The translations under genes and the position numbers were made by a program. The notes beneath the pieces are model-generated. The model saw nothing but the letters and a program-made list of their open reading frames with translations, was not told the origin of the DNA and did no database searches. From assembly GCA_034096865.1 (NCBI GenBank), contig JAWQFJ010001145.1, positions 113,501 to 177,500 of the forward strand: DNA of 64,000 bases, in the 5' to 3' direction. The stretch is from Theodoxus fluviatilis (taxonomy: Eukaryota > Mollusca > Gastropoda > Cycloneritida > Neritidae). Positions 3,233 through 40,877 of the stretch are shown here, one piece after another; positions within the stretch are counted from its first letter, which is position 1; the number at the start of each line of letters is the position of its first letter.

Positions 3233-3709
3233 TAGGTAGGGGCGCACCCCCGCAAAATGGGTGGAAAAGCTGCCTCAGGTCATGATTTTACTTAGTTTTA
3301 ATCAGCTGAAATGAATCTCTAAAACGTCAAGAACAAGATTAAAACACATCGAAACAGAAAGATAAACAATCCTTCTGTCTGTTAGCATCCTTGTTATTGT
3401 CAGATCTGTTTGATTTGAGCAATTCTGAGTCATTTGAAAGTTGTCACTTTTCAAGCCGTGTCAGCATCCATTTTGCGTTAGTCAACTTGGCCGAAATCAC
3501 CACTCGATTTCGGAGGAGAAGTAAACACGCACTATTTCATCTTTATCAACAGAGTTGATCTACATTAGCGGAACATAGTCCGTAGTTTACACTGGTATAT
3601 GTAATTTTTTCATGCGTTATTTAGTTTTTTTAATTAAATAGTTTCTTTAATAGTGGTCATCTTTAAACCCGTGTAACTTTTGAACCGCTGAACCGAATGA
3701 CCACATATA

Positions 3710-4056
3710 CAGACCTGCCAACCCACCATCATGCCAAAGAGTAGCATCCAGAGCTATTTGGAGTAGCATAGAAGGAATAGGCGTAGCGGGGGTGGGGGGT
3801 GGGGAGAGATAAAGCTGTGAGGTTGGCGCGATAAGCTGACCCGGTGGCGTGAAAGTGGGGGGGGGTTTAGATAAGGCTGTGAAGGCGATGCGATAAGCTG
3901 CACTGGCGGCGTGAAAGCGGGGGGGGGAGATTCTCCATCGCGGTCAAAAGTTCAAGCACGCGGAAAAGCGTAGTTTTTATGGACAAGCGTAGCAGCGTAG
4001 CAAGCATGTCGAAAGCGTAGCATGCTACGCCTAAAGCGTAGCATTTGGCAGGTCTG
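3710..4056. mobile_element. CAGACCTG-ended MITE (347 bp), inside A
   Basis: The termini CAGACCTGCCAA and TTGGCAGGTCTG are perfect inverted repeats, flanked by 6-bp duplications CATATA (3704-3709 and 4057-4062). About 50 bp at the left and 85 bp at the right match the ends of the larger element at 18185-19087, including GCGTAGCAGCGTAGCAAGC. This is therefore an internally deleted derivative of that family. It has no coding content. Confidence 0.88.
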
Positions 4057-4199
4057 CATATAGGATGCGCCTGAAAGCTCATTCTTCTGTGATTCCAACC
4101 GTATAACACATGCCATCGTAGTAGTCAGACGAGAGGAGCGCAGCCAATGAGAAGAGAGCTGTCTAAGAGTCTTCGGCAGACCCGTTTCGACCGGCTGTC

Positions 4200-5716
4200 A
4201 TGGCTGACGCGGTGCTTTCCGTCGCTAGCTGCGAAGATGAATCTACATCTTTTGTGACGCAAATCAGAGCCATATTGGGTAAGTAATCATATTTATACGT
4301 AGAAAAGATCCTTAGGTAATCATTTTTGGCAGTAATTTGTTACTAAATTCATTTGTAATTGTGAAAATACGTCGCTTGTTTTACTTTTAGACCCACGTGC
4401 TTACCATATCAGCGGAGATTTCGTTTCAATGCTCTGTGCTCTCGCGCGCTGATTTAATTTGTTTCTTTAGGAAACAGTTGCTGCTACTGTGCCTAGATCA
4501 AGTTTGAGTCATTTCGGAATCATTCTATGCCTGATATTAACGTGTTTTCTCATGAATTGCGATGGACGCTCATGGATTAATATAGAGGTGCCTCGCCGCA
4601 CCTCGCTTGCAATGACATCGCTGTTGATCAACATTTCACTCGAGTTGTGAAATGGGGTGTTATTTTTTACCTTTCGCCATACATGTGATATATTTATTTC
4701 AAAGTCAAACTAATCTTCAATCACTACTTCGATAGTTTTTAATTCTCTACAGTCTGCTGTTGTTTTCTTAAGGATTAAATAAGGATGTAAGGAATATTTG
4801 CTCCTTTGCTGAAACGCTAGGCCTCGCGTTCCGAACACCATCCATTCATTCATCGTTGTTTTTTTCTCAGTTTATCCAAGTTTTATGGTCCATCATACTA
4901 ATTTGAGTCAAATAAAAGACTGACTGAAACTGTGAAAGTAAAACTAAAACTAAAACTAGTAAAAGTAAACAGCCCTGTGTCATGTGTGGTTTCAGTCATA
5001 AATCAGTAAATAATTGATAATTGATGTGAGCATATTTTATTTGTTACAGATGATGCCCACTTCCAGCAAATGAAGTCTGCTTTCACAGCAACTGGAAGAG
5101 GTAGACCATTGCAACTTCAGGTCGTATCACTAACCAGAAGCTGGTTCTGAAGAAGAAGTCTTGCTTCTTGATTGTCACAGGCACTCTGCTAGCACTGTAC
5201 AACCGCCTGCGGCAGTTCTTTGGTGCGGAACCGCTTGAGAGACTACCCTCTCTTTTTCTTGAAGAAAGGACACAGCCACAGGGCAGAAAGCAGCTGCATT
5301 TTGACTCTGAGGAGGAGGAGATGCATGAAGAAGAGGAGATCAGTAGTGAAGAAGAGAGTGAGGACTTTGACTTTGAGTCAAAGTTTGACTTTGAGAAAGA
5401 CTTCAAGTTTGAGAGAGTGGGGGAGATCATTGCTGTCTATTACTTGGAGGACTTCTATATTGGTGAAGTGACGTCAGTTCTGAGTGAGGAGGAGGGGACA
5501 GTGAACTTTCTGGAATCTGCAAGAGGCACCAAGGATGTGTTCCGCTGGCCTAGCAGGGCTGACTGCTGCAAGATTCCATCATCAGTTGTTTTTGCTCGCA
5601 ACATTGCACTTGCACCATATTCTTCTTCTGGCAGATCATTCACAGTGGAATCTCCAGCAAACCTGCCTGCCATGTACACCAGTTTTAAGCAGTACTTGAT
5701 TGACAATTTAGTTTGA
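4200..5716 (+). pseudogene. A-encoded protein: exon 1 plus deletion-fused C-terminus
   Basis: Exon 1 (4200-4278) starts MADAVLSVASCEDE and ends at donor GTAAGT in phase 1. Exon 2 resumes at 5050 (acceptor TTGTTACAG) with DDAHFQQMKSAFTATGRGRP, homologous to the start of B exon 2. Near 5135 the sequence jumps to QKLVLKKKSCF, homologous to QKLVLAKSSPL close to the C-terminus in B, out of frame with the 5' part. From 5168 the frame is open to 5716: an acidic segment, then the Tudor/SH3-like module with IIAVYYLEDFYIGEV, VFRWPS and SFTVES. The central transposase core is deleted, so A cannot be autonomous. The intact C-terminal ORF is notable. Confidence 0.75.
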
Positions 5717-6738
5717 GTCTTTGAATGACTTTGAAGTAGGGAGATGAATTTGACAATCGCAACTTGTCCCACTGTGCGCTTTGCAAGAATTTTGTTTAGT
5801 ACATAGAACTGTGAACAGTATTTGTAAATATCTTCCTTGATTTAACACATATGTGTGAAGATAACAGTATAACTAATCTACACACCAAAAATCATGGCTG
5901 TATTCCCAATAGTTTCTGAAATATTTCAATCTGAAATGTGGTTTCCCCCTAAATTTCCGTCGTTTCCACTGAAGATCATGGAGAATTTGTACATACTTGT
6001 GTGTGATTTTTTCAAACATTGCACTGTCTACAAAGCTTACATTGTAATCTGTCTATACACCAAAATTGGTGGTTGTATCTTCAATAGTTTCTGAATTATT
6101 GGCAATAAAGTAGGTAGCGGCAGCCCCCCCCCAAAGCGCCCATCAATGTGCAAAATCTCTCATTTTTGGTCATTTTCTAAAGCTAATATCTCAGCTACTA
6201 TGGCACAGATTTTGTTTTACCTTTCACCCAATAAAAGACGAATCTTTCATCTTTTGATTGCAGTTGGTTTTATTGCGATTGATTAGAGGTGCATTTCCCG
6301 CGAATAAAAAGAGTAGACCATGTGAAACGCCGCTCGCGTCATTTTGTCCAGCCGCGAACGCAATGGCTTCTCAACGCGGATTTCGCCTTGTGTCTTTGCT
6401 GGCCTCGCGTGGTGCTGACACGTGCACTACACAGATAAATTTAGTATCAAAATGATCACGTGAGCACACTCTTTCTAACGGTGCCATTACCAATTTTTAA
6501 AACCAAAAACTGTGGATGCGGCTTCAATTCTTCTACAAAGTATGGTAGTTTTTCGTAGATTCTGAAGAAAATACGCAATATTTCGCGACTTAACGGAGAG
6601 AAAAATAAAGAAGAATCTATTCTCGTTCGAATGAGATACGGGGCTAATTTATTCATGACGTGTCAGCATCACGCGAGCCAATGAAACAGACTACCCATTC
6701 ACGAAGTTCAAATATCCGACTACGATTTCGTTCACAAC

Positions 6739-9700
6739 ATGGCGGACGAAGAAACCGAGTGCGATCCTTCGATTGTGAGCGAAGATTCTTGCGAGATCGG
6801 TAAGTCTGCAATCATTTTCTTGCATTTCAATCTTAAATAATCATTTTAGAAACACGTCTATGATAGTTTTGTGATCAAAATGCGAAATACCGTGATGAAA
6901 TAAGTGAGTTGAACCGAGTGCTCCGTGGACGTCGAGTTCGTATTTTTTTCTCGTACCGGAAGTGCTGATTTCATTCGATTGATCAACATTTTCTTCAAAA
7001 TCCTTGAGTTCTTAGTGATACAATCACATTTAAACTTGAAGATCAATTATTTATAAACATGTCTTATTTAATTTATGGCAGTAAATTATGAGATTAACTA
7101 GGAAATCCTCTGATAGTAAAACAAGGGGAGGTAATTTTTCACGCACTGACGTAGGCTTGTGAAACTGTATTGTAGTGTCACTAAGTTTTAGTTCTGGAAG
7201 TAAAGAACTTATTATTTAGGCGTGGTTTATTAAATTCGCTCAACAAATAATTGTTTGAAGCAAGTTTAAACCTCATAAGTATTTGTTTTCAATATATCAA
7301 AATGTTATTATTAATATTAATTATTAATATTATCTTTTGTTTTTTTTGTGCAGATGATACAGTGTGTCAGCAATTAAAGGCAGTGTTTTTTGCAAGAGGG
7401 AAGGGTAGACGCCCTAACCTTCCCATCGTCCCCCTGACAGACAAACTGTTGCTGCATATTCTTCAACTTAAAGAAGAAGGAGGAAAGACTTTTGATGAGG
7501 CAGCATTCTTCCTCAACAAGCTGTTCCCAACATCACCTGTTTGGAGACTGAGGTCCTTGCTGGTGTCGGCAAAAGCCAAACAGAGACTAACTCCTCCTCC
7601 ACCTTCTGCTCCAGCTGTCACACTCCAGCTGCATGACCTTGGACCTTTTTTGCAGGGCATAGATAGGGTAACCATTCTGGAAGGACTACCTGTGTCTCAG
7701 TGCCTCAACCCTACCTTTGGTCTGCTGAAAGATCTTCTTCATCTAAAGCAAAAAGAGAATGGCACATACAGAGATGTGTGCAAGTGGTGGTGTCATCTGA
7801 CTGGCACCAGTTCGTCAGAGCCAAATTTCAGAAAAGCCGTGGCAAAATTCACCAAGAAGAACGCAAAGCTCCAATCCAACGCATCGAGACCAGCCGGAAA
7901 GGAAGCTTACGACAACTTTCTTCTTTCTTCTCCTTTCAAGTTCAACCCTCCTCTCCTGCACCATCATCAGAATCTGCTTGTTCGTCTGATCCTCTTCTGG
8001 AAGCAGGTAACACAATTATACCTGATCACTCACTGAAACTAGCAGATACTGCCAGGCAGCTCTTGGCATCAAGGCGAAAGCAGGAAGAATTGGAAGCCGA
8101 TGTTGCCAGACTAGAGTTGCGCTGCGCAGTATTACTTGAACTCAACAAGGACAAGCAGCTAGAGATGAAGGCTCTTCAAGGCACCAATGCTCAGCTTCTT
8201 GCAAATGTGGAAAATTTGAAGAGCAAAGTGTCAGAACTGGAACGGAAGTTTCTTGCCAGGAATGAACGTGTGGATGAAATCACCAGGAGGCTAAACTATG
8301 TGAGAGACAGGGGTGTGGAGAAGAAGTTGCAAAGAAAAGAAACCAAGTTGGAGGAGCTGCGCACACACCTGAAGCAAACGGAAGACCTACTGCAAGACAA
8401 AGCAGATGTTGAGAGAGGACTGAGAGACAAGCTTGGTCAGCAACAGGTTGCAAAAGCTGAAATAAAGCGCCAGCTGGACAATGCCAAGCAAAAAATGGAA
8501 GTTGCAGCAGAGAGAGCGGCTCCCCTTGAAATGCAAGATGAGGATGAGATAATCAGACTAAAGAATGAGCTTGGACACTTCAAAAAGGAGGCCAAAGTTG
8601 CCATCATGGCGCTGATGGGAGAGTGTGAAGTGCCGGCACACAGGTGTGGTGTTGTCATCAAGACAGTTGTGCAGAACATATGTGCCGGTAGAGTTTTAGA
8701 AAGCGATTTGCCATCGCAACGCACGGCTCTCAGATTTGCTGATCAGATGCACGTTTTGAGCAAGGCTCACGTAGCTGAGACACTTCAAAGAACTGACCAT
8801 TGGGACTTGCATGTCGACGGTACTAGTCGTGGGGGTGTGAAATATGTTTGCCAACAAATCACAACCGGTGAAGGGACCCTCTCCCTTGGATTCATCCCCG
8901 TGGCCACAGAGGACACATCAACTCTCGTTGATATCACAATCCAAATGTTGGAGGAGATTTCTGACATCTACTCAGGAGAGCAAGCCCAGCAGATGTTCTT
9001 GCAGATGCTCATCAGCTTAACATCAGTCATGTCAGATCGAGCGGCCGTGATAAAGTCGTTTGCTAGAAGCCTACAGGATGAGCGTCGCCTGCTTCTCCAG
9101 AGTGATGAGGGCCTGGAGTTTCTGCATTGCAATGCCCACTACCTTCTTGGTATGGGTACCGCATGTAAGAATGTACTGGCAACAGAAGAGAAGGAAGGTG
9201 GGGTGAAACTGGGAAGAGATGCCCTGCCACGCTTCAACTCATTCAAGGCTACAGAATGTTCAGCATTCAGGTAAGTTATGCTACTATTACTAATTGCAAG
9301 TGTCTGTTATGAGTATTAATGTTATGAGACTATCAACGGTTGCCCCTAGTGAAGCGCCCGAGCGTCTCAACCGAGATTCAAACCACGGACCCTTGGATCC
9401 GAAGTCCAGTGTGCTACCAATTACTAAATTAGCCATCCTGGCGAACAAAATTGTAAAATTACCTTGCAAAAGTGTGATTGTTTTTGTTTTCAATTTGTTA
9501 CTTTGTAATGTTTGTTTGTCATAAACTGATAAACTATCATAAAAAATGATAAAGTGACCAATATTTTTTTCACAGGTATATTCGCACAGCTTGTGATGTT
9601 CTTGGACCACGTGGAGACGACAAAAATGGCATGAGAGACAGCTGGGAAGCCTACTGTTTGACTGTGGGAAGGACTTCAGCAGTGACCAGTTTCAGGGAAA

Positions 9701-12032
9701 ACAGGTTTAACAACTTGTTTCAAGCAGCTGCAGGTTAGTTTTCTTAGAAATTTTAGATTTTTTAAATCTCATAAATAATAAAACTGTATCCAGGCAGTTA
9801 TATTATATATGTGATGTGGTTGCTGCTTCTTCTTCAGCATTTGATGGGTTGTGCCTAGATCTGTTGACCAGTGATTGTCGCATACTCCGCTGTCAGGCGT
9901 AGGTCGTGTGCGGGACCCCACAGTTTGGCTTCAAAACTTCAAGCAAAATTACAACCAAGTTGCGTAGCAATCAGAATTGTAAAAATAAAATAATGTAAAA
10001 AATTTAATTGCAGGGCTTCACTACCATCGTCAAGACATTCAGGAGTGCACGGACCTCATGAACCACATCAAGACAGTCAACGGGAAGATCCAGAGCGTGG
10101 CTGCAGACAGCAGGTGTGAAACCATTGACAACCACATCATTGCACTTGGACTGCTGTATTTCAGAATTACAGGTCAGTTTTGGTGTTAATTGATTCTCGG
10201 ATGATGAGCATGTTTTGCTTTGTTTATTTACTTAGTGAAAGTGAAAGAAACAAACAGATGACTGTCACAAGTTATGTTTTGTCTACATTCTACAGGGTTA
10301 GAATAGAAATCAAAAATTAATTCTGAGGGCCAGCTGACACAACACAGTTTTGGAGGCCAAATTAAATGTTTGAGGTCCAAGTCAAGATCATATTGTTTTG
10401 CGGTCGGCATGCAGACGTACGGAGCTTTATGCTGGCCAAAAGTAATTTTTGAAAGCATTGGCCCCATGGCCCGTGTTAATTTCGAACCCTGTGCTAAACT
10501 TTTTTATTCACTTTTCAGGTCCATACTGGAGTCTCCTTGGCGCTTCGGTCCACTATCTGGATTTCTACTCCTATGTGGGACAACTTCATGCTGTCCTTCT
10601 GGCTTGGTCTCAAGATGCGTCCACTGCCCTTGATGTCAACTGTGAATCTCTCTTCCCTGACATTGTCTTTAACAAAGACAACGACATCTTGGAATCCCTA
10701 CTGTCAATCGGAGAGGTCAAGAAGGCGGCTGTGGCGACTCTCTTGCAGAAAATATGCATTGGCCTGTTGGAGATGACCAAACGGCAATTGGGTGACTTTC
10801 TTCCTGAAGGACGCTATTTCAATGTCCAGGACCCTGCTCTGCGAGCTAAACTGGAGCACTCTCACATCACCAACCTCGTGAGTGAGGAAAACTTTGCTGA
10901 CTTGGATTTTTCTTTGTTCAAGCGAAGAAATTCAACTCTGCACCATCACTCCACCATGAATATGCTCAAGAGGAACAGGTCCATGTCAACGTGGCTTGCA
11001 CATAAATCTGAAGCTGATCAGCAGCAACTCCTTGAAATGTGCAGCAAAAAGGCTGCATCCTTGAGGGAAAAGCATGTCGCGTTGGAGAAAGAGGCGGTGA
11101 GGAGGAAAAAAGACATGTTGCAGGAGGCTCGCCAGAAAAAGGACGCTGCCGATGAAAGACAACGACAAAAGGCAGGTTTTTTGTATGACTGATTGTATGC
11201 ATTTCAACCATCGTATGAAGAAGTATGCATTTGAAACAATATTAAAGTTCTTTAGGGTTGTTATTAATGTTATTTCACCAAAAACAATTCATAATGTAAT
11301 TTGATGTATGAATCTGTTTTTTTCCAGGTACTTTCAGTGATGGAAGACTTGCGCATCCACCAGGGACCATGTACCACTGCTGCTGACATCAACAGAATGC
11401 TAGCAGCCTACAGGACCGATGGAGGGCTGAAGAAGGCACTGAGAGCTGAAATCTTGTTCCAGAAGCTAGTGTTAGCAAAGTCTTCGCCCCTCCTGAGGGT
11501 CTCTGGCTCGTCTTTGACGCTGGCCAACAGACTGCTCGCATTTTTGGGGGAGCAGGCTATGGATAGGCTGCCACCGCTTCACCATCCTGACGGGAATCCA
11601 GCAGCCAAGCGACCTCGCACGCAGCTGCTTGAAGAGGAGGAAGAGCCGGAGGAGGAGTCCGAAGAAGATGAAGATGAAGAAGACAGGCAAGCAGTGGCGG
11701 TCACCGTATGTGAACATTCTTTCAAGTTCTCACGGCATGGAGAAATGATCGCTGTCTACTATGAGGACACCTTCTACATTGGAGAGGTGATGGATATCAC
11801 TGGGGAGGAGGAGGCTGTTGTGAACTTCATGGAGCAGGCCAAAGACAGCTCTGTATTCAGATGGCCATCAAAAGAAGACCGTTGTGCGATCGCAGCTGAC
11901 GTCGTCTTTGCCGGCAACCTAGTTCTTGCTCCTTCTTCCTCTTCAAGTCGATCCTTCATAGTTGAATCACCTCAGAACCTGCCAGAACTGTACAGAGCCT
12001 TTAAGGCATATCTCATTGAGAACTTGTTGTAA
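6739..12032 (+). CDS. Putative transposase of B: coiled coil, RNase H-like core, Tudor-like C-terminus
   Basis: Six exons with good splice sites: 6739-6799, 7354-9270, 9576-9733, 10014-10172, 10519-11175, 11338-12032, about 1,215 codons. Exon 1 starts MADEETECDPS. Exon 2 holds an N-terminal domain (QQLKAVFFARGKGRR) and a second module (YRDVCKWWCHLTGTSS), then a coiled coil (about 8050-8600). The core follows: WDLHVDGTSRGG (Asp near 8816), a beta-rich stretch, VMSDRAAVIKSF (Asp near 9036) and FLHCNAHYLLG (near 9124). Later exons carry LGPRGDD, ENRFNNLFQAAA, GPYWSLLG and LVSEENFADLDFSLFKRRNS. The last exon has an acidic tract and IAVYYEDTFYIGEV...FRWPS, a Tudor/SH3-like fold by pattern. The spacing of Asp-Thr, Asp and Cys/His motifs recalls hAT-type cores, but I see no clear third acid. 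A -1 frame change at about 7935 separates the first ~190 residues from the rest. Function as transposase is inferred from its place between inverted repeats. Confidence 0.72.
9345..9445 (-). repeat. tRNA-Arg-like SINE head, degenerate
   Basis: On the minus strand the sequence reads TGGCTAATTTAGTAATTGG (A-box-like), then an anticodon-loop-like GGACTTCGGATCC as in tRNA-Arg(TCG), then GGTTTGAATCTC (B-box-like). The stems are too poor for a functional tRNA. It lies in intron 2 of the B gene. Confidence 0.4.
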
Positions 12033-13360
12033 TCTTTTCGTTCACCGGACATCAACTACCAGTACCACCCACCCACCCCCTCGCCCATTTCTAGTTTTCG
12101 CCCACCTACCTTGCTCAGTTGCTGTGTGCAATAACTGTTGAAATATTAAGAATAAGCTCATGCCCCCCTCCCATGTTGATGATCATCCATTACCAAGATA
12201 CACAAAATTGAGTCAACGACAATTTTTATGTCTGGTATGTCAAAATTCTGGATTTTGTTGTAATTTTATGTATTTAGTCACCATGATTTTGGTCAGATTT
12301 TATTTCATCAACTTCAAACTTTGCAGGATAATAGAAACACTTGAACTCTTTCATGTTCCCAAATTTTATGTAAATCCTTCGAATAGTTTAGAAGTTATTG
12401 CGTTTTTACTGTTTTGTTATTGTCTAAGTGACGGACGCTGGCCAAATTGAGGTTTTCCGCTACTTTGAGAACCTATATCTCCAAATCTTACCAAAGTAAT
12501 GCTGCAAAGAAAATTGGGTGTGGTCTACATATATAGTTGTACAATATTGGTCAATTTCAATCTAGTGCTGTATATAGTTTCTGATTTATGAAGTCCCAAA
12601 GTGGCCTTGTTGAGCAGTTTTGACGCGTTTGAAATCGTGGTTTTTGTGAACTTTGCAAGATCACTGCAAGAGCAAATATTATCAGAGACTGTTGAAACTA
12701 TGCTTTTTTCTATACCTGTGTGTAGAGAAAACATTCACAACATTTGAACCTTTTAGCTGTTTAGTAAGCACCTGGTATATGCAGCCAAAGTACCTATATT
12801 TTCGTGTTTCATTCAACGCCGCGTCGGTGTATATCTTTAAACGCCCATATCTCTGTAACTAATTATCTGATTTACTTACTCTTTTTTTTTGTTTTGCTTC
12901 TGTTGTTATGGAGATTAAGAAAATATCAATTTAATTAACATTTGTTCAATTTAAAATTTTCACTGCCGCTACCTAAATAAAGTGACAAAAAATGTACTTT
13001 TTCCTGTTGTTCCGCTTAACAAATTCGTGTTTTTGTCATTTGTTTGGCTCTTTTTCTCCCAAAATATGAAACTAGACTGGCTGAAAAAAAAGAGACTTAT
13101 TCTACACAAACATGTTTGGCATTTCTGAAAGTTCCAGACTGCTCCTGTACATATTGTATGAAATGTGATGACCGAAAGTTGCCCCCTCGGCAATTTTGTG
13201 ATCGGAGGCGCGAAAACATGTATACTAAAATATCAATATCTCATGAACTAATAAAGATATCCACTTACTTTTTTTGGTGTTATGCTTGTATTGTGTTCTT
13301 TTAAAATATCACAAAACATACACTCTCACTTAAAAATAAAATTTTGACTGCCCCTACCTA

Positions 13361-13367
13361 ATAAGAT
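13361..13367. repeat. 7-bp target-site duplication of A, right copy (ATAAGAT)
   Basis: Abuts the TACCTA end of A and is followed by the continuation of the interrupted piggyBac-like reading frame. Confidence 0.9.
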
Positions 13368-14231: not shown

Positions 14232-14235
14232 TTAA

Positions 14236-16035: not shown

Positions 16036-16285
16036 TTAAACTTCACAGAGCAAATGAAGCATTAAAGGATGGATAGATGGATGGATGGATGGATGGAGCT
16101 TCAGGACCTAGCAGCATGCATCAAAGGAAACAAATCAGCAAGCACAGAGGCCAAAAGCAAGGCCTGACTAATACACAAGTCTGTGGCAAGGGGCGCTCAT
16201 CTCCAATTGGAAAAGTACATAAACTACTTCCCAATTATGCACATTATAGTTTCCTGGACCATGTCAAAAGCAGTACAGGATGTTC

Positions 16286-16659: not shown

Positions 16660-16805
16660 CTTCCGCACATCATCTAATGTGTGGACTTCAGGTGAAAGCC
16701 CACCGTGGACGCACAGGAACTGTTGATTCATTAAAGCTGCAAGTGGCAGGCAGTCAAAGGCTTCCATACATCCCTCATAGACTCTCTCTGTGTACTTTAT
16801 TTTAC
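16660..16805 (-). CDS. PPP3C: Calcineurin A, coding exon 5
   Basis: 146-nt exon with acceptor GCTTTCAG and donor GTAAGA. It encodes [20 protein letters not shown] and [18 protein letters not shown], then HTLDDVRK. The CVHGG motif supplies another metal-liganding His. The exon lies only 40 bp from a (GT)n microsatellite and close to a 17-20-bp minisatellite, so its borders are worth confirming with RNA data, but the splice sites and phases agree with both neighbours. Confidence 0.94.
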
Positions 16806-16861
16806 CTGAAAGCAAAAATCACAGTGCATCAGTGGTGCCCATCTCTCAATCACGTCTCACC

Positions 16862-17645
16862 AGTATGGTCAGAGAGCACCAGAATGGTCACAGAGCACCA
16901 GCGTGGTCACAGCGCACCAGCGTGGTCACAGCGCACCAGTATGGTTATATAGTACAGCATGGTTATATAGTACAGCATGGTTATATAGTACCAGCGTGGT
17001 CAAAGCGCACCAGCGTGGTCAAAGCGCACCAGCGTGGTCACAGCGCACCAGCATGGTCAGAGCACCAGCATGGTCACAGCACACCAGCGTGGTCACAGCG
17101 CACCAGTATGGTTATATAGTACAGCATGGTTATATAGTACCAGCGTGGTCAAAGCGCACCAGCGTGGTCAAAGCACACCAGCGTGGTCACAGCGCACCAG
17201 CATGGTCAGAGCACCAGCGTGGTCACACCGCACCAGCATGGTCACAGCACACCAGCATGGTCACAGCACACCAGCATGGTCACAGCACACCAGCATGGTG
17301 AGAGCACCAGCATGGTCAGAGCACCAGTGTGGTCACAGCGCACCAGCGTGGTCAGAGCACCAGCATGGTCAGAGCACCAGCGTGGTTATATAGTACCAGC
17401 ATGGTCACAGAACCAGCGTGGTCACAGCGCATAAGCGTGCTCACAGCCCACCAGCATGGTCACAGCCCACCAGCGTGGTCACAGAGCACCAGCATGGTCA
17501 CAGCACCAGCATCGTCACAGAGCATCAGCATGGTCACAGAGCACCAGTATGGCACAGAGTATCAGTATGGTCACAGCACCAGTATGGTCACAGAGCACCA
17601 GTATGGTCACAGAGCACCAGTATGGTTGGTCACAGAGCATCATCA
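16862..17645. repeat. Minisatellite, ~17-20-bp unit (CACCAGCATGGTCACAG)
   Basis: About 40 imperfect units of CACCAGCRTGGTCACAGCG type in calcineurin intron 4, immediately upstream of exon 5 in the gene's direction. Variant units contain GGTTATATAGTAC and recur in blocks, so higher-order duplication is visible. All open frames here (repeated HQHGHS or APAWSQ) are products of the repeat. Confidence 0.93.
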
Positions 17646-17909
17646 CAAGGTGAAATGAGAAGGACATGCTTTGACATCTACCTCATGCCTACTTTAATTC
17701 AAACCCATCTGAGTTGCTGGTCAGTTTATTTGTGGCAAATTTTAAAATGATGCTTCTACCACAGAGGCCTGCAAACTAACCAGAATACTCACCTACCTAA
17801 TACATATGAAAGACACAATGACAACCATGAATACATAGGCAACACTAGGTCATGGCAAAATATCATAGCATATTTTATAAATGGGAGGTGGCTGAGTGGA
17901 GATATTTGG

Positions 17910-27258: not shown

Positions 27259-29643
27259 GGGGAGGTGCGGGTGATATTTTGAGTCCATAACGACAAAATT
27301 ATCAAATTTTGGTTCTTGTGTTCTTTGCATTCTCCAATCACCGTACTATGATGAAATAAACATATTTAGTCTAGATTTTGTCTAAATATAGTATTATCAG
27401 CCTTAAATCAACTGAGGGGGTGCGTCAGAAAAGAAAAAACATCAACAGATCGATGCTAAAAACATGCTTTTGACGCAGCATTTCAACCACAAGAGAGCGA
27501 GCGATCGTAGTTGAGTTTGATACCATTAGATAGCCCTGCAATCCCTCCACAAAGTGCACTGACAGATCATGTATCTCTTCAAACCTCTATCCAATGAGAG
27601 AGCAGTTTCTGTCGCTAAGAAAGGCCAGCTTTCACGACGTTTGTGAGTGAGATGGGTAAGGCTATTGGCTGGCTGGAGTCACGTGACTCATTCTGGCTTC
27701 TGGATTGGCTCAAAGTGTAAACAATATGGCGCTCTCCACAACTATCGGTTGCTGTTGAATTTCGTTCGGTGATTGATATTGCGCGATCATGCCGAGAAGA
27801 AAACAACGTTCGGAGAAATTTAGACACAGTAGATCACGTAGACGCCTTGCAAAACAGGCTGCAGGTATTCGACAGCACCGTAAGGCTGAAAAGAGTGTTT
27901 CGACGGCAACACTGAGTGACTGACTGAAGCTTCATCTCTGCCTGCGACGACTAGTACAATCACCGATGTCTCTGCGAAAAGATCCCAAGATTCTCCTCAA
28001 CCGAGCACGTCAAGTGGATTTCGTGGAGTTAAACGAACATCTAATTTAGCTTTCCATCTGGAGACACAGTTGAGTGACTCTGATGAATAGGATGCTAATG
28101 TTCCGCTTGTCGCGGAGCGAGTACGCCAACGTATTTTGCTATCTGGGACTGGAGTCAGCTGCTACGAGTGAGGATGATGAACTTCCAACAACAATCGTCG
28201 ATCTGAACTTGGTCAGGCAACTTTTTCAGCAGTGTGCTTGCAAAGCATGTGGAGGTGAAATGGACATTGTAAGCAATGAAGCTAAATCAGCTGGACTGGC
28301 TGTTTCTCTGCAACTGTATTGCTCAGAGTGTGGCACAGTGGTTGATGAAATATTCACCAGTAAAAGAATGCATGAGGGTGGGAGAGAGCCATTTGTTGTG
28401 AACAGGGTGTGTGCACTAGCTAGCAGTTTGTGTGGATTAGGACCCTCAAAGTTTGGCAAGTTGTGTGAATACATGAACCTCCCCACTACATCACAGCACT
28501 TTCCAGGATCACATGAAGGAAGTCTACCTCACAAATGAAACTGAGAAAGCTAGGATCAGAGCTGCAGCTGCAAGAGAGGTGAGAAAAGCTCATGAGAAAT
28601 TCCATGGTGTGAACTTGACTGATGATGACATTATTGATGTAGCTGTTTCTTATGATGGTTCCTGGCTAACAAGAGGCTTCAAGTCTAAGATAGGAATTGG
28701 ATGTGTTGTTGACCTGCTGACTGGCTTGTGCATTGACTGGCATGTGGCATCAACATACTGCCAGACATGTGAAACAACAGGTGCTCAAAAGAAACAACTT
28801 GGCACCACTGACTATGAAGCATGGCTGGAAGAGCACAAACCACACTGTGAAAAGAACTTTAGTGGCACAGCAGGTATGATGGGGGTAGAGGCAGCCAAGG
28901 TGATTTGGTCCCAGTCTGATGAGGTGAATGGAATGCGGTACACCACCATGCAGTGTGATGGTGATAGCAAGGCATTCAAAGAGTTGCAGAAGATGTGGGT
29001 GTATGGTGACAGAATGAATCTGCACATCAACAAGCAGATCCTGGAGGATTTTGAAGCATGATACTGGCAGAGGAGAGATGCCTTCCCAATAGCCACTCTT
29101 TGATTCCTTGATTGGTTGTTGACTTAATGAAAACCTGCGATTTCTCAAAATCGACAAATTCCAAACTTTTGTCATCAATATCTCAGTAAGTTCAACTTTA
29201 ATCTTCCTGAAATTTGCAGTGAAGTCTCTTCTACCTGTGCTGAAGTACCTGATGTTGAGAAATTTGGGTTTGGTAGGTTATGTTTTGATCTACATGAGTG
29301 TAAACTGTCATTTTTAAAGAAAAAGTGACATGCAAATTTTAATAATCAGTTTTAAATTGTTAAAGTTAATATTTTGAAAAATTAACTCTGTCAGGTATTG
29401 AAGAACATATTGAGGTACTTAGTGATAAAAACAAATCTGTGTTAAAGACTGTCTGCTGTGTTACACTGTTGCCCAAAAATGTGCAATTTTGAGAATAAAA
29501 TTGCTATTTCTAAGTCAACATTTCAGTTTTATGACTTGAATTTTTGACTGTAATTACCTTTATATGCATGCTTGATATTGCATAAGTAATGATTAAATGA
29601 AAATCAAAACAAAAAAAGTTTTCCATTTCACCAGCACCTCCCC
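27259..29643 (+). mobile_element. Kolobok/Mutator-like DNA transposon (2.4 kb)
   Basis: The left end GGGGAGGTGCGGGTGA and right end TCACCAGCACCTCCCC are imperfect inverted repeats. The right flank is TTAA (29644-29647), the left flank is ATAA (27255-27258), and the empty site in sister repeats is TTAA. TTAA targeting with GG ends suggests Kolobok. It encodes a protein of the type often annotated as Mutator-like transposase (27789-29061). Confidence 0.78.
27789..29061 (+). pseudogene. Kolobok/Mutator-like transposase, frameshifted
   Basis: The ATG at 27789 starts the basic peptide MPRRKQRSEKFRHSRSRRLA and stops early. The frame resumes near 28170 with VDLNLVRQLFQQCACKACGG and a second CSECG (zinc-ribbon-like, 28230-28340), then a frame change near 28505 to HMKEVYLTNETEK. 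Next come VAVSYDGSWLTRGFKSKIG, a first-Asp RNase H-type strand, then DLLTGLCIDWHV and MQCDGDSKAFKEL with a second Asp. The ORF ends at 29061 with DRMNLHINKQILEDFEA. The C-terminal catalytic part appears missing or decayed. Confidence 0.7.
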
Positions 29644-31774: not shown

Positions 31775-31798
31775 AATGGATGGATGGCGTTTTAGAGC

Positions 31799-31805
31799 CT
31801 ATTAG
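31799..31805. repeat. 7-bp target-site duplication of C, left copy (CTATTAG)
   Basis: Identical to 40355-40361, and present once in the unoccupied repeat copy near 702. Confidence 0.9.
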
Positions 31806-32421
31806 TAGGTACCGGCAGGCTATTACTAACACTGTAAGACAAATGACTAGCAGTTGATTTTCAGTTGTATTCATACAACCATTAAAATTGCCTTTGTGCA
31901 TGTATTGGCACTTGATGCAAACCATAATAAAGGAACAGGTTTCATTCTTTCCAATGATGTAAATGACTTTGCTGTGTGATGAATGGATGATTTTTGACAA
32001 TTTTTTAAAAATAAACATGTGTTGACACATTTTTCGCACTAAGACTTGCGCAGCCGATCGGATGGAAAACACCACGCGCATTCTCTTCGCTGGTGGCTTC
32101 TCCCTATTCAATGTGTTGAGCTAAAAATAGCACAAGAAGCGAGAGTACATAATTACCTTTACACTGATACCATATTACCTTTACACTGATACCAAATGTG
32201 TCTAAGTTAATAAAAAATAAATCATTCGAATCGCAAAATAACATTTTCAAGCTTAATTTTTGGCAAGAAAGCGAAGAAATAACCATATAAACGCTATACT
32301 TTTTGAAAACGTTGATTTTCGTCCGACGGTTTGAGAGTATTTTCCATGACATGAATAGGGAAGCGGCGCTTTGGGTTGAAACAAGCCCTCCCATTGGTCT
32401 TTTACCTCAATCTGCGTGAAA

Positions 32422-35400
32422 ATGGCAACGTGCTCTGCTGCTTCGACTTTGATTACTTTGAGTCAGCTTAGAAATTTGGTAAGTATTCAATGAAATGAAA
32501 ATGCCTTTTTGCAGTAAATGTTGTTATAAGATTATTAGTAAGCTGTAGGAGCAAAGGTTCGCTGCAAATATTGTAATTTTAGGTAATCGGTACACTGAGG
32601 CGAACTGCTATGTCGACATTGACTAACCTATGGCGACATGCCTCATGAAAACATTAACTGCATCTTTTAATCGATTAATATACTGACCATAACTTATAAT
32701 ACTTGTCAATAAGTAGTTCATATTGCTGTTTATTTAATTGTAACGTTTGATGGTCTGTTGTGGATTAGATATGCGCTCTCATACTTATAAACAATTTTGC
32801 AAGGGAGGTAACCAGCCCAATATTGCAGCTAGTCTAGTGCCATTGGAAAATGTACTTCAAGCTGCTGTCGTGTCACATAAAAGTAATAGTTTTTCCTCTT
32901 GGAATAAATTATGGCATTTGCTAATTCTTTTCATTTGACATTTTCTACAGATGCTTCTCCTGAATTTGATGACCTGAGACAAGCTTTCTTCGCATCAGGA
33001 CCTGGAAGACATAAGGATGTTTACCGATCATTGCAAAACGAACTGCTATTGCAAGTTTTTCTCCTGAAGGAAGAGGGTGGGAAATCATGACCTCATGTAG
33101 AGGCATTTGTGCAAAAAGTCACAAGACACAATGATGTCCCCAAAGACAGACTGCGTACATTGACAGAAAAGGCTGTAGGAGAACTAAACCATCAGACTCT
33201 TGAATCTCTTGACACATTCCTTGGTATGAAGGTAGATATTGATGCCATTGGAGACCATCTTGCAACAGCAGGATTCACAAAAGCATCATTGTTGACTTCA
33301 ACATTTGAAGTTAGGGAGTCCATGCCATCTAATGGACTTTTGATAGAGTTAGCACGAGTGCAACAAAAGCACAACGTGTCATCTGAGACATTTCTTCAGT
33401 GGTTCTGCAGATTGACTGGCGCCTCTACAGCTCTGCCACCAGGAACAAGCCAGAAATTCCACAAGACTGTACTTTTAGTAACAACTCAGTTGAAGAAGCT
33501 TCAGAAGAACAAAGCAAAAAAGGATGGAGCTGATGCACTTCAAGGACAGTGAGAGTGAACCAGAGTGTGGCAGTGAGAAAACTGAGAATCTTGGAGGCCT
33601 GCATTCACAGCTTTCAATGTTGCGTCGCCAGCTCCAAGACAAAGAGGAAGAGTGCCAATCCCTCCAACAGAAAGTCAATGTTTTGGCAGGTGAACAAAAA
33701 GCAACATTTCATAAACTGCAGTTGACCACCAACACCAATTCTACACTTGAACTTCAATTACTTGATGAAAAGAACGAAACATCCAAGTTGAAACAAGAGT
33801 GTGATGCTCTTCAAGCAGAATTGAAGGCAAAGGACACAGAACTGAAGTCCATGAAAAGGGAAAATGTTGCTAGAAGACTTAAAAGAATGCAACGTTTGAA
33901 TGCAATCTTGACATCTGCACTCCAGAGAGCCCCAAAAAGCAAGTTCACAACAAAACGAGCATACAACCAAAGACATTACTTCCAAAAGAAGTTGTTCGGG
34001 ACTGAAAACAAGAAAAATGTGGAAAAACAACAGAAAGTACATTTCCAAGAAGAACACGACTCTCTTTGCAAGCGTGTCGCTGAACTTGAGGCAGAAGTGG
34101 AAGACAAGATTGTGAGATTGAAGGATCCAGACAGGCTATTTCACAGATGTGGCGAAAGTCTGTATGATGAAATTGCAGCAGAACGGTGTGGGAGGGTCAT
34201 TGAGACCGTATGTCGAACAGTATTGAATGCCCGGGTCCCCGAGACTGATTTTCCTTCTGCACAAAGTGTTGGCCGTTGTGTTGATGCTGGGCAGGTGCTT
34301 AGCAAAATGCAAGTTGCAGAATCAATTTCCAACAGCGACAGGTTTGATTTGCACACTGATGGAACCACAAAAGGGGGAAAGAAAATTGTCACCCAGCAAG
34401 TTACCACCAACAATGGACAGATATTTTCCTGTGGTTACACAGTTGTAGCTTCAGAGACAGCTGATACACTTGTAGATGTTGCAGCATCACTCCTTGAAGA
34501 ACTGACTATTGTCTATAAGACCGATGAAGAGAAACATGAAAAATTTCTAGAATTTCTACAAAAGCTGAGTGGGCTTATGTCTGACAGAGCCGCTGTGATG
34601 AAACGTTTCAATTCAAGGTTCAGTGACCTGAGAAGTGAAATTCTGCAGATAGACAACCAGGATGAGGTGGCATTCTTGTTTTGTAATGCACATTTTCTCC
34701 TTGGACTTTCAAGCTCTGTGGAGAAAATGTTCAAGGATCTGAGTGATGCTGATGGACGCAGGATTGGAAGAGACCCGATTGACAAGTTCTTGCGGGGTGC
34801 CAAGAAAGAACACCCAGCAACATGTTACATTTGTGAGGCATGCGCATGTTTGGGCCCAAGAGGTGATGAATGATATATGGATGTAGAGAGAACTGTCTGG
34901 CGTACTGTCTAATGAACAATATTGGCAGCTCTATAACATCGTTCAAAGCAAACAGATTCAATCACCTGTTTCAGGCTGCAGCTTCTCTTCACCATCATCA
35001 GCATGACATCCATTTGTTTTTGGCAGACTTGTCAGACTTGAACTGGAAGTAGGAGGGACTCCTTCACGACTCCTCTTGCATTGACCTTGGCAATTATCTC
35101 ATTGCCTTGGGTCTTCTCTTCTACCGACTCACAGGACCCTACTGGTTGCTTCTGGGCAAAGGCGGCTAATACCTTGACTTCTAGCTCCATGTTGTTCAGA
35201 TGAAGGACTTCTTGCAACGGTACAATATTTTCATTTTTACATACAACTACAGCAAAACTAATTTACATGAACTCCAATATCTTGAAGTTATGTGTAATTA
35301 CCTTCAGAATTGTGATATTAATACTTCAGACTGCAGTACATATTCTTAATTATATCATTTACTGTTGTGTTTACATGAAAGTATATTGAGTTTGACACTC

Positions 35401-37690
35401 TTACATGTTTACAGGTGGAAGGATGATCCACATGATGCCTTTGCTGTCATTACTTTGATGGTCTCTTCGATGTGGACATGGGCTGCAACAATGATCCCAT
35501 CTTTCAGTAAGTATTAGGAGTTAGGGGGAAATTAAGCATTTTTCATCATACCGTGGCTTATGGTTCAAGACATTTCATTATTTGGCATTAACCCTCACAC
35601 TGTAGTACTAGTAAACTTTCTTTTTTCTGTATTTAAGGTCACTTATCACTGTGTGTTACGGTTCAGCCTTTGTTCCATTTTCTGTATTGTTTGAAACGAT
35701 TCGCCATGTCAATGTTTTGGCGGGAACAAGTTGAGCTTTGCACTGAGACCGGTTTGAACCGGCTGTTTTTAAAATTATCAGTGATGCAACAATGATTTGA
35801 TTGGTTGGAGGTGGTGGCGCATGAGCTGTGGGTGACTCGAGTTGAGAACGCTGGAATTATGTAATTCAGTTGACTCTGGGAATGTCGTTATGAGCAGAAG
35901 TATTTTCGAGCAGCTCCGTGTTGAGATGAAACACGTTAAAATTATAATCCTCCCCAGACCATCTGATAGGTTGTATCAAGAAGAACAGTGTCCTCTATGA
36001 ATGAAAAACAAGTTCCGCCTGACTATGAAGCCTAGTTCATCGCCGGGAAAGTTCATCGTTGGTGCACTTAAAAAGTTCGTGTTTGTTCGGGCAAATGTGT
36101 GAGCCCGCTGTGTCTATGGCCTTTTGATCCTCTCCTTTCGATGTAGAGTCTTGAGAGAGTGTGTGCTTATGAATGCCCATTTCTGAGTGGACATCGTTTT
36201 GGGCAGGAGTTTCGTCGTTGGAAAGTTCGAGAAGCGTCATCGCCTATCTGTGTGAACTTGTGAGTAACTCTGGGTCAACTTTGGTTTCGGGTCAGTGAAA
36301 TTAATCCTCTACTTTTTAGTCAGAGAGTAGACCGATAGAATTGATTGACATTTTCGTTCATATTGCCTTGAATTTGATTTCACTCATGATTAAGTCTGAT
36401 TAAAGAAAATCCTTAATGAACATTGTGTCACGTCATGCGAGCGTGAGACAAGAGTGAGTGAAGTAATTATCCCCCCTCCCCTAGTGATACCCCTAGACAA
36501 GAAAACAGAAAGAATTTGATAATTGTATGAGTGTGGGAGTTGATACTGTGCCTGAGGATCGACAAGATGCTGTCAAGGTTCACCTGCATGCGCTGTGTGG
36601 CAGATTTCAAAAGGCTGTCGAAGAGCAACTGAATGACTTCCTTCCTGATGGCAAGTACCACAACGTGCAGGATCCTGAACTACGGCAAAAGCTTCAGCAC
36701 TCCAAGCTGTCAAACCTGGTGTCAGAGCAGTCTTTTGGGGACCTTGATTATTCTGTCTTCAAGAGAAGGAATGCATCAGCCCACCTTCACAGCTCGATCA
36801 ACATGATGCAGCGCAACAAAACAATGACAGTCTGGTTTTGCGCTTTGTCACCAGAAGAACAGAAGGCAGCACTTCAAAGAGAGTCAGCACTGCATGAAAA
36901 GTTGAGAAAAAAGAAAAGAACTGAGGAGAAGGCAGCCTTGGAAAAGAGGAAGGAGCTCATGCAGGAGGCCAATGCAAAGAGAAACGCTCTTGAAGGAAAA
37001 CGAAGACTAAAAAAACTGTCTGTTCTTGAGCAGTTGCAAAAGCATCAAGGACCATGTACATCTCCAGCAGATGTGAAACGCGTTCTTTGCAGTTGCGATT
37101 CAGTAGGAAAAAAAAAGAAGGCAATCCAGGCAGAACTACAGTATCAGAAAATGATTCTAGGCCACAAGTCACCCCTTCTTGTGATTACCAAGAAGCTGCC
37201 CCAGCTCATTTCCAACCTGTCCCAGTTTCTTGGTGGATCAGTCAGCGACAGTGGAAGCAACTTGGAGTCACAGGCAGAAGGTCCACCACCAAAAAGTAGA
37301 CATATGCAAGTACTAGGTGAAACTGAAAGTGACACTGAAGACGATGATGAGAATGTAGAGGAGGAAGAGGAGAATGCAGAACTTCCAGAAGAGGATGATG
37401 TTTCAGTTCCAATTCCAGATTTGAACTTTCGCTTTGAGAGAGCTGGTGGCTTTGTTGCTGTGGGATATGAAGAAGATTTTTTTTGTAGGAGAGATAGAAG
37501 AAGTTTTGAGTGAGGACAAAGGTGTTATAAATTTCAGGTCGCACAATGGAACTGTTTTCAAGTGACCGAACAACCCAGATAGAGCAAGCATGGAGGCAAG
37601 ATTTGTCCTCGCTGCTGACCTCCTACTCTATCTGCCGTGATGTTCTGAAGAGCCTGGAACACAAGTACAGAGCTTTCAGGCTGATGTACT
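32422..37690 (+). pseudogene. C-encoded homologue of the B protein, multiply broken
   Basis: Exon 1 (32422-32478) starts MATCSAASTLITLSQ but is one base short of the phase seen in A and B. Exon 2 starts at 32951 (DLRQAFFASGPGRH) and has an in-frame TGA at 33088. The frame shifts in an A-run near 33515 into the coiled coil, then runs open to 34873 through FDLHTDGTTKGGKK, GLMSDRAAVMKRF and FLFCNAHFLLG. It shifts again at GDE (34870), continues FKANRFNHLFQAAASLHHHQ with no introns where B has three, and has stops near 35168. An intron (about 35219-35414) and a larger one (about 35508-36526) follow. The C-terminal exon (36527-37513) has QLNDFLPDGKYHN, a coiled coil, an acidic tract and FVAVGYEEDFF, then a T-run frameshift and a TGA. 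Confidence 0.8.
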
Positions 37691-37906
37691 TTACTGCTTA
37701 ACTTGATACTTACCAAGGTTGGAAACTATCATCTGTAGGAGGGGATGGGGGGGGGGGGGGGGGGATTTTATATTTTTTTTTTGCAAATGGTTGGAATGTT
37801 GTGTTGTTGCATGCCACTGGCAAGGCCTTGAAAAAACAATCACAGAACACTTTTAATTTTGACAATCGGACAGTAATTGTGCATTGTACAGCCAAATGAA
37901 GTTTAT

Positions 37907-38105
37907 CCCTCCAGGTTTACTGGAGGTCCTACAGACTTTATCTGTCTGTCTGTGTGTGTGTCTGTCTGTCCCGACTTAACGGCTTATATCTCAAAAACTA
38001 CTGGACGGATTTCCTTGAGATTTTGCCCACTAACTGGAAGTTAGGTCCGATTGAATGTATCAAATTTTCAGAATCGAGGCTTGAAGAGAAAGTGGTTTTT
38101 TAAGG
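37907..38105. repeat. Inverted copy of the ~190-bp hairpin repeat
   Basis: Reverse complement of 20551-20745. It starts TCCCTCCAGGTTTACTGGAG and includes a (TGTC)n tract. Confidence 0.7.
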
Positions 38106-38129
38106 TCGTACACTCCAGAGCGCCTCCCC

Positions 38130-38880
38130 AAATATGCGGTTCATGGAATGGCGAAATTGCGTAATGTTTGACGTCATTAATAACGTTACGTCATTTGCAA
38201 GTAGAATTTTGAGGATAATGGATTTCGTACACTCAGAAGCACCTCCCTCGATAGTCAATAGATGTAAGAGCCTAATCGAGTCAAACTCTTTTCCTACGTT
38301 CACAAAACAACATTTGGCTTCTTTGTATTATGAACGTCTACCAGCAGACGCAAAAAAGCGATGCTACGCTGTGTTGGCGTCAAATTCATTCCATTTGTGA
38401 AACCGGTAAAGTATATGTACCATCTAGATCGTTGCCTTCGCTGGTTAAAAGCCTGGAAGTGGAATCGCCCAGCGAACTAACTGAAAGTTCGACACAATCA
38501 CGCGGCACTGTTGTACATTTGCAGTCAACGTAAGATCTCGTACGACGATTTGATTCAAGGCCTAGTGCTAATTGTTTTGATGGTCTGGTCTCAGTGTCAC
38601 AAAAATATGATGATTTAATCAATCCCTGACCCGGAAATGTTGGGGACAACGACCATTTCAGCGTAATGACATCGAGTCAAACAGAGTTATCTTTCCTACT
38701 TCAGCAAAACGCTTCGATATATGTTGAACCTCTACCAGCAGACGCCAAAATGCGATACTACGAGAAGAATATTGACGTTGATGGGTTAGATCCGTATGAA
38801 ATACCAAACAGTTCATGCTATCATCCATTTTTCTACAATTTACAGTGCAAAATACGAACCACGGGGGTTTATGAAAAGGT
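38130..38880 (+). pseudogene. Remnant of an unidentified repetitive gene, duplicated motif
   Basis: Two related peptides occur ~390 bp apart: HLASLYYERLPADAKKRCYA (about 38310) and ASIYVEPLPADAKMRYYEKN (about 38710), the second followed by DGLDPYEIP. The shared LPADAK-R-Y pattern shows a diverged tandem duplication of a coding segment. I have seen this pattern in repetitive invertebrate proteins but cannot name the family. Confidence 0.4.
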
Positions 38881-38914
38881 CGTTATAAATGCTTCACATA
38901 CATACAAGTTTTCA

Positions 38915-39150
38915 ATGGCACAGTTGGTAGAGCATTGGGCTCTTGGTCATGCATGACCAGGTTCGATTCTGCGCTGAAACTTTTTTTTCTTCTCTTTTTT
39001 CGAGGGGTTGTGGGTTCGAACCCGACCTGGTTTTTTGTGTTTGTGTGTGTGTGCGTTTTTTCCTCCTCTTTTCTCGGAGGCTGCGGGTTCGAACCCAATT
39101 TTTTTTTCTCTCCAAAACCTGGAGGTTCAGCGCCAGCGGTTTTTATCTAC
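38915..39150 (+). repeat. tRNA-derived SINE, plus orientation
   Basis: ATGGCACAGTTGGTAGAGC is an A-box-containing tRNA head, GGGCTCTTGG resembles a tRNA-Lys anticodon loop, and AGGTTCGATTCTG is the B box. Two further GGGTTCGAACCC modules follow, each after a T-run, then AAACCTGGAGGTTCAGCGCC shared with 19265-19525. No stable tRNA acceptor stem is seen. Confidence 0.65.
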
Positions 39151-39349
39151 ATAATGTATCTTTCGGCCATGGTGCAAATTTGCTCAAGTAGCTACTTTTT
39201 ATGCCTGTGAAAAACTTTGCAGTTTTGATTGCCTGAAAAAAAGGGTCACTGTACACATGCAGTACAACAGATTCTGTAAATTTGAGCTTGTTCTTTGGAA
39301 CAGGTAGCATTATATAGCTTCTAAAAATCAGCCATCGTAAAATTTGACA

Positions 39350-40190
39350 ACAAGAAGGGCAAAGCCCATACAACTCACATGCTTGACCTTGACCTTTACA
39401 TGACCTTGACCTTCAGGTGACCTTCAAGGTCAAGGCCAAACAACTACACCTAGCAATGACATCATACACTAAACTAAGGAATGCTTTACACATTTTTCCT
39501 ACCAAAATACATGTGGCCTTGACCCAAGGTCAAGGTCATCCAAGGTCATGCAACACAAAGCTGTTAATTCAAGACATAGGAAGCACAATGGTGCTTATTG
39601 GCACTTTCTACCATGAGATATGGTCACTTTTAGTGGTTCACTACCCCATTTTGGTCACATTTCATAAGGGTCAAAGTGACCTTGACCTTGATGATATGTG
39701 ACCAAATGTGTCTTATGATGAAAGTATAACATGTGCCCCACATAATTATTAAGTTTGAAACAGTTATCTTCCATAGTTCAGGGTCAAGGTCACTTCAAAA
39801 TATGTATACAATCCAACTTTGAAGAGCTCCTGTGACCTTGACCTTGAAGCAAGGTCAACCAAACTGGTATCAAAATATAGGGCTTACTTTGCCCTATATA
39901 CCATGTATAGGTGAGGTATCCAATCTCAAAAACTTCAGAGAAAATTGAGAAAATGTGAAAAATGGCTGTTTTTAAACAACATTTATGGCTCCTGCGACCT
40001 TGACCTTGAAGCAAGGTCAAGTCACTATGTATGTTTTCTGAGGCCTTGTCATCATACACCATCATGCCAAATTGGGTGTTGATAGACTTAATAGTCTCTG
40101 AGAAAAATCCAACGTTTAAGTTTTTTACGCCCGGACGGACGACACGGGTGAGTAAATAGACTCACTTTTGCTTCGCATGTGAGTCAAAAA
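39350..40190. mobile_element. TCAAGGTCA-rich repeat, copy 5, inside C
   Basis: Full-length copy from ACAAGAAGGGCAAAG to GTGAGTCAAAAA, 164 bp from the right end of C. It is younger than C. Confidence 0.85.
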
Positions 40191-40877
40191 TGATGAAAAA
40201 CGTCTGAACGTTTGCCGCATTTAACAGTACTTATCTCTGGTTCTATTAAAGCTAGAAACAAACTTTTTTTGTTGTGTTTGTATTTTTTCCCCTCTTCAAT
40301 TATGTAATAGTTATGATAGACCTGAAAAATCAAATTTTGCCATGCCTGTACCTACTATTAGTCTTTGTAGGCTTGCTCTCACAAAGCCTGACGGCACTTT
40401 CAATGTCTGGGGGAAAGGACCTGTTCCAGAATTTGTGGAAGGTTATGTCATGACTGTTTAATCAAACCTATAGACTACATGCAGTATATTATGCTTCGTC
40501 ATTGGCATGTCATCCCACCGTGTGAACATACAATTTATGGAGCATGCACACACACACATACTCACACACACTCCTATAGCTAAACACTAGACGGCTATTC
40601 ATATAACTGGCTAATGTGAATCTCTTTTCTTGACCATTGGCCACGCATTTACATCTAACTAGCATTCCTTGGCCTCAATATCAACATAAGTGGACTAAGT
40701 AATAGAGATTGCTTTGAATCTATTTGGGAAAAAGAGAAGGGAGCACTTGGAGCATGGTGGTGGTTAGTATAGCAGATGGTTAGTCCTGAACTTCTCACTC
40801 TGAAATCTGTAACCTTGGATTACACAATATGTCAAATGTTCCCGATAGCATCTTGTTGGTTAGCAGGTCATCATTAA

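What the first reader, a model, noticed from the sequence alone, without database searches (positions are those of the whole stretch)
3233..40354. Unrecognised transposon family: TAGGTA ends, 7-bp duplications, three copies
Three elements (A 3233-13360, B 6111-12975, C 31806-40354) independently show TAGGTA...TACCTA inverted ends, GGCAG-type extensions and perfect, different 7-bp flanking duplications (ATAAGAT, AATAAAG, CTATTAG). All three carry the same multi-domain gene on the plus strand, complete in B. Seen directly: ends, duplications, shared gene. Known: a 7-bp duplication is unusual (P and Dada elements come closest; hAT makes 8 or 5-6, Mutator 8-11). Inference: this is a distinct superfamily or a deep branch of a hAT/P-like one.
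Basis: partly seen in the sequence, partly recalled or inferred. Interest (0 to 1): 0.95.

Follow-up and report, generated by a model that had tools for sequence, protein, structure and literature searches.

The report
This DNA, probably from a sea snail, carries a family of cut-and-paste jumping genes whose moving enzyme is folded like that of the hAT group (the group of the fly element Hermes) but which has different ends, a different front part and a 7-letter insertion footprint, and which the family library we checked does not recognise; altered descendants of it seem to live on as an ordinary gene in ray-finned fish.

The parts
3233..13360 (+). Element A: transposon derivative containing nested element B; only the C-terminal part of the gene kept (about 5111-5707)
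   Evidence: ends TAGGTAGGGGCGC / CTGCCCCTACCTA, 7-bp TSD; tblastn
3226..3232 (.). Target-site duplication of A, left copy (ATAAGAT)
13361..13367 (.). Target-site duplication of A, right copy (ATAAGAT)
2688..3232 (+). piggyBac-type ORF (PF13843) interrupted by A; with A and one TSD copy left out the frame runs on for 20 codons from 13368 and the score rises from 35.8 to 53.5 bits
6111..12975 (+). Element B: copy with all regions of the gene, 6865 bp, 13-bp perfect inverted ends
6104..6110 (.). Target-site duplication of B, left copy (AATAAAG)
12976..12982 (.). Target-site duplication of B, right copy (AATAAAG); relatives L082 and L089 have one uninterrupted AATGAAG here
6739..6799 (+). B gene, exon 1 (proposed; MADEETECD...)
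   Evidence: read from sequence, splice donor GTAAGT; not confirmed by RNA
7354..9270 (+). B gene, exon 2: N-terminal tandem helical domain (7356-7937), coiled coil, start of catalytic domain with D (LHVDGT), D (MSDRAAV) and CxxH (LHCNAH); frame break at about 7937-8033
9576..9733 (+). B gene, exon 3 (proposed; YIRTACDVLGPRGDDK...RFNNLF)
10014..10172 (+). B gene, exon 4 (proposed)
10519..11175 (+). B gene, exon 5 (proposed, 3' end approximate): end of helical insertion and the last catalytic residue E (ITNLVSEENFADLDF)
11329..12032 (+). B gene, exon 6 (proposed, 5' end approximate): helical region, acidic linker, C-terminal beta-barrel domain, stop
31806..40354 (+). Element C: decayed relative, 8549 bp
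31799..31805 (.). Target-site duplication of C, left copy (CTATTAG)
40355..40361 (.). Target-site duplication of C, right copy (CTATTAG)
33494..34873 (+). C gene remnant: coiled coil and catalytic core with DLHTDGT, MSDRAAVMK, LFCNAHFLLGL

Best explanation
A, B and C are copies, of different completeness, of a cut-and-paste DNA transposon lineage whose transposase has a hAT-like catalytic core. Shown or modelled: short 13-bp inverted ends (TAGGTAnnGGCAG), 7-bp target duplications, two empty sites, and one gene encoding a tandem helical N-terminal domain, a coiled coil, an RNase H-like DDE domain (D71, D144, E442 in P0021, with a CxxH motif) split by a helical insertion as in Hermes, and a C-terminal beta-barrel domain. 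Inferred: the N-terminal domain binds the ends, the coiled coil and C-terminal parts assemble multimers or touch chromatin, the DDE site excises the element, probably by making hairpins on the flanking DNA as Hermes does (about 0.6), and the 3' ends attack the target 7 bp apart at nTnnnAn sites. Shorter copies with the same ends (743 to about 2,350 bp, not tested for coding capacity) are probably moved in trans. The lineage is a deep sister, or a very divergent branch, of hAT; it is not filed here as a hAT member.
Against: The hAT profile match is weak: HHalign probability 13-21%, E-values for a single template without database correction; against 11 single hAT sequences it fades to scores of 13.5-22.7, no better than shuffles. 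No transposase model in Pfam: list of 44 members complete to E 0.05, and complete lists to E 10 for P0021 and nine others. No BED finger found. Profile comparison with P, MULE, Kolobok or KDZ could not be made, so the sequence signal is not shown to be specific to hAT; C's core gave a weak MULE hit (E 0.083). One crinoid relative (P0074) lacks the second aspartate. Hairpin formation and trans-mobilisation are inference. The insertion sites all come from one genome; for C2933, C2247 and C10221 a matching pair of ends was not found.
Confidence: 0.82

Rival explanations
1. It is a lineage inside the hAT superfamily that lacks the BED finger and shifted to 7-bp duplications, comparable with fungal hAT7. 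(A variant of the best explanation; the two are not exclusive.)
For: Hermes-like core and insertion, CxxH and DDE, hAT-register HHalign, nTnnnAn target; hAT5, hAT6 and hAT7 show that duplication length varies within hAT (PMC12730594 section 3.1.2); the Repbase paper's query example implies hAT entries with 7-bp TSDs (PMC4455052 passage).
Against: No hAT model in the Pfam lists, although classical hATs are common in the same genome (150 scored matches to PF05699 of 698 candidates); different N-terminal domain; 11% identity to Hermes. hAT7 was classed by transposase similarity and groups with fungal hATs, Ac and Tam3.
Confidence: 0.45
2. It belongs to the P superfamily, which includes Galileo with 7-bp duplications.
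For: Galileo makes mostly 7-bp duplications and has DDE with D(2)H (PMC4168063 passages). Coiled coil before the catalytic domain (the P-element leucine zipper is recalled, not from a call).
Against: No THAP domain in Pfam scans of the N-terminal pieces of B and C or of relatives; helical N-terminal model. No P-element entry in the rows shown of the fold listings, which by itself excludes nothing.
Confidence: 0.06
3. It is a Dada element (6-7 bp duplications).
For: Duplication length; DDE plus DxxH/CxxH; introns (PMC3706591 section read).
Against: Dada-U6 and Dada-U1 have no terminal inverted repeats and Dada inserts into multicopy RNA genes; this family has 13-bp inverted ends and varied sites.
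Confidence: 0.02
4. The 7-bp repeats are chance or assembly artefacts around unrelated repeats.
For: The short end pattern is common by chance.
Against: 21 of 25 exact duplications, empty sites and a conserved transposase.
Confidence: 0.01

Closest known systems
Hermes / hAT superfamily
   Same: RNase H-like core with helical insertion, DDE, CxxH, short inverted ends, T/A at the second and penultimate target positions
   Different: 7 instead of 8 bp, TAGGTA ends, tandem helical N-terminal domain instead of BED, long coiled coil, extra C-terminal beta-barrel, no Pfam hAT match in the lists seen
hAT7 (fungal)
   Same: 7-bp duplications (PMC12730594 section 3.1.2)
   Different: classed as hAT by transposase similarity, grouping with fungal and plant hATs; reported there from rust fungi
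P superfamily (Galileo)
   Same: mostly 7-bp duplications, DDE with D/CxxH
   Different: THAP domain in Galileo, not found here
Dada
   Same: 6-7 bp duplications, DDE plus DxxH/CxxH, introns
   Different: no inverted ends in Dada-U6 and Dada-U1, RNA-gene targets, CCCC and CCHC fingers
Kyakuja (KDZ)
   Same: 7-bp duplications (PMC12730594 passage)
   Different: CA..TG termini without inverted repeats; no KDZ model in the Pfam lists seen

Membership tests
hAT superfamily | RNase H-like catalytic domain with helical insertion, as in Hermes | tested here: met
hAT superfamily | DDE triad plus CxxH | tested here: met
   D71 48/55, D144 49/55, C175 51/55, H178 52/55, E442 55/55; all 7 losses of D71 and 5 of 6 of D144 are in fish proteins, the sixth in crinoid P0074
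hAT superfamily | Recognised by the hAT dimerisation profile PF05699 | tested here: not met
   not listed for any of 44 relatives down to E 0.05, nor for P0021 and nine others to E 10 (HMMER's filters drop most matches above about 0.1)
hAT superfamily | N-terminal BED zinc finger | tested here: not met
   N-terminal model pLDDT 94.6, two three-helix units; 0 Pfam families for the window N-terminal piece at E<=10
hAT superfamily | 8-bp duplication (5-7 bp in hAT5-7) | tested here: inconclusive
   7 bp, within the reported range
hAT superfamily | Target nTnnnnAn (Hermes) | tested here: inconclusive
   nTnnnAn, one base shorter
hAT superfamily | A at position 2 and G at position 5 of the ends (recalled, from no call) | tested here: not met
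   TAGGT: A2 present, G5 absent
P superfamily | THAP domain | tested here: not met
   no THAP hit for the N-terminal pieces of B and C at E<=10 or in the lists for relatives
P superfamily | P-element fold with GTP-binding insertion (recalled) | tested here: inconclusive
   not among rows shown, which does not exclude it
Dada | Insertion into multicopy small RNA genes, no terminal inverted repeats | tested here: not met
   13-bp inverted ends, 21 varied sites, one in a piggyBac-type frame; flanks were not screened one by one for RNA genes
Dada | N-terminal CCCC and C-terminal CCHC fingers | not tested
   not specifically searched
KDZ / Kyakuja | CA..TG ends without inverted repeats | tested here: not met
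   TAGGTA..TACCTA inverted ends; feature

The most novel reading that the evidence does not exclude
A distinct superfamily of animal DNA transposons, sister to hAT rather than within it, spread across bilaterians, with a helical end-binding domain and a fixed 7-bp stagger; and a host gene of ray-finned fishes domesticated from it before sturgeons and teleosts separated, keeping parts of the fold but not the catalytic aspartates.
Probability: 0.4. Interest if true: 0.75.

Novelty: new variant of a known kind. Interest (0 to 1): 0.62.

Why it matters
If true, the Hermes-type catalytic fold is used more widely than present sequence models show, and repeat annotation that relies on those models would leave such copies unclassified. 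A 7-bp stagger on a hAT-like core, with the same T/A target preference one base closer together, lets the spacing of the two active sites be compared directly with Hermes. Its fish relatives would be a further case of transposase domestication. The TAGGTAnnGGCAG ends give a marker for surveying other genomes.

Tried and rejected
Rejected readings: chance or artefact (empty sites); Dada (ends, sites); P superfamily as first choice (no THAP found); KDZ (ends); programmed frameshifting in exon 2 (B and C shift in different directions by the ORF frames, and L052 and L054 are open through it). An alternative division of the ends (AGTAGGTA..TACCTACT with a 3-bp duplication) is excluded by duplications that do not end in AG, such as ATAAGAT and AACAAAT.

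Literature: nine answered searches of the open PMC library, read as listings, show no description of this family; from the listed papers I read passages or single sections of PMC3706591, PMC10045372, PMC12730594, PMC4455052, PMC4168063, PMC10368747 and PMC6900584. Repbase itself and most subscription papers were not searched, so it may be listed there, perhaps as a hAT-type entry.

Rows dropped before counts: the 7 fish rows of A1 were left out of the profile for HHalign (48 rows kept); of the hAT hits, those under 480 aa and P0151 were left out (82 rows with the two query proteins); P0096 was left out of the tree; A1 holds 55 and A2 44 of the proteins found.
Full report
WHAT WAS CHECKED. The end pattern alone proves little: in the window it is no commoner than chance (18 matches with up to 3 mismatches, 19.3 expected), and genome-wide with one mismatch its excess over the backward-read control is modest. 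The case rests on pairing and flanks. In the host genome (965 Mb, unnamed; the closest named protein relatives are from the sea snail Littorina saxatilis) I fetched twenty pairs of exact ends picked by eye from the first 100 places and the ends of two transposase-bearing copies. With A, B and C that makes 25 pairs; 21 have an exact duplication of at least 7 bp, twenty of exactly 7 and one of 8 (L050). Three of the four failures have visible reasons (two subfamilies' ends paired, L044; an inner pair of a nested set, L045a; Ns in the flank, L048); L038 has none. The pairs span 743 to 11,739 bp; coding capacity of the short ones was not tested.

EMPTY SITES. A lies in a frame that matches the piggyBac-type family PF13843. 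Leaving out A and one copy of ATAAGAT lets the frame run on for 20 codons, and the Pfam score rises from 35.8 bits (E 7e-9) to 53.5 bits (E 3e-14), the alignment passing through the junction. B lies inside A; two related copies (L082, L089; 96% identity over 787 columns) have no insertion there and a single AATGAAG, one base different from B's AATAAAG. For C no frame was restored.

THE GENE. By tblastn with the protein of the C977 copy, B carries the whole gene in about six proposed exons with a frame break in the second; C carries fragments in several frames; A carries only the last ~200 residues. So 'the same multi-domain gene in all three' holds only in part. Long open frames exist elsewhere (1231, 1231, 1227 and 1249 aa), and C977 and C3060 have duplications AACAAAT and CTCAAAG.

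TARGET. Strand-symmetrised, the 21 sites give C/A-T-n-n-n-A-G/T: T at 2 or A at 6 in 30 of 42, C at 1 or G at 7 in 24 of 42 (binomial 1e-8 and 5e-7; the two ends of one site are counted as independent, so these are optimistic). Hermes' published preference is nTnnnnAn with 8 bp (PMC10368747, passages read). The same T/A pair, one base closer together, fits a hAT-like transpososome with a 7-bp stagger.

MECHANISM. Cut-and-paste by a DDE transposase is well supported. By analogy to Hermes (PMC6900584, passages), excision probably leaves hairpins on the flanking DNA; this step is inference (about 0.6).

MEMBERSHIP. It works like a hAT element. It fails two defining features tested here (PF05699 recognition, BED finger) and a third recalled one (G at end position 5), so I do not file it as hAT. 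P, Dada and KDZ fit worse. Seven-bp duplications are known in Galileo, hAT7 and Kyakuja and 6-7 in Dada, so duplication length alone does not make it new.

FISH. Twelve fish-type proteins lie on one side of a branch with 100% SH-aLRT support (quick tree, midpoint root), grouped as sturgeon/paddlefish, eels, milkfish/sucker and percomorphs. In the seven fish proteins of A1 the first aspartate is lost in all and the second in five, while E442 is kept. Identities of 84-88% among sturgeons and paddlefish and 74-85% among eels suggest vertical inheritance. Domestication is the natural reading; selection was not measured.

LIMITS. All insertion data are from one genome; profile comparison with P, MULE, Kolobok and KDZ could not be run; Repbase was not available.

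Noticed in passing
P0092-P0101, P0103-P0105: Fish proteins related to the transposase form one group following species relationships and lack the first catalytic aspartate in all seven aligned; two (P0096, P0101) carry a solute carrier 52 riboflavin transporter name, perhaps from a neighbouring gene. Likely a domesticated gene.
   Followed up: partly
window 2688-3232 and 13368 onward: piggyBac-type transposase frame (PF13843) interrupted by element A
   Followed up: yes
window 28477-29061 (+): Mutator-like transposase fragment (PF20700, E 1.5e-24)
   Followed up: no
window 56511-57407 (-): DDE_1 transposase frame (E 1e-40)
   Followed up: no
window 52315-53497 (-): Reverse transcriptase fragment (PF00078) next to a frame with a C2HC finger match
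   Followed up: no
window 18245-18846 and 22722-23120 (-): ORFs that by eye resemble the N-terminal part of the classical hAT transposase of L092; no Pfam hit
   Followed up: no
window 16781-17750 (+): Tandem-repeat region giving long repetitive frames (AWSQRTSMV-type units)
   Followed up: no
L089 1080-1544: Inverted partial copy of the element's 3' tail just outside its right end in C3060 (89% identity)
   Followed up: no
L006 to L008 (C66:29652-45928): A 16-kb end pair with matching CTTTATC flanks enclosing another left end (L007): a nested set
   Followed up: partly
window 3233-5134: Left 1.9 kb of A has no blastn match to the C977 element although its right part is 97% identical, so A may be a recombinant of two subfamilies
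   Followed up: partly
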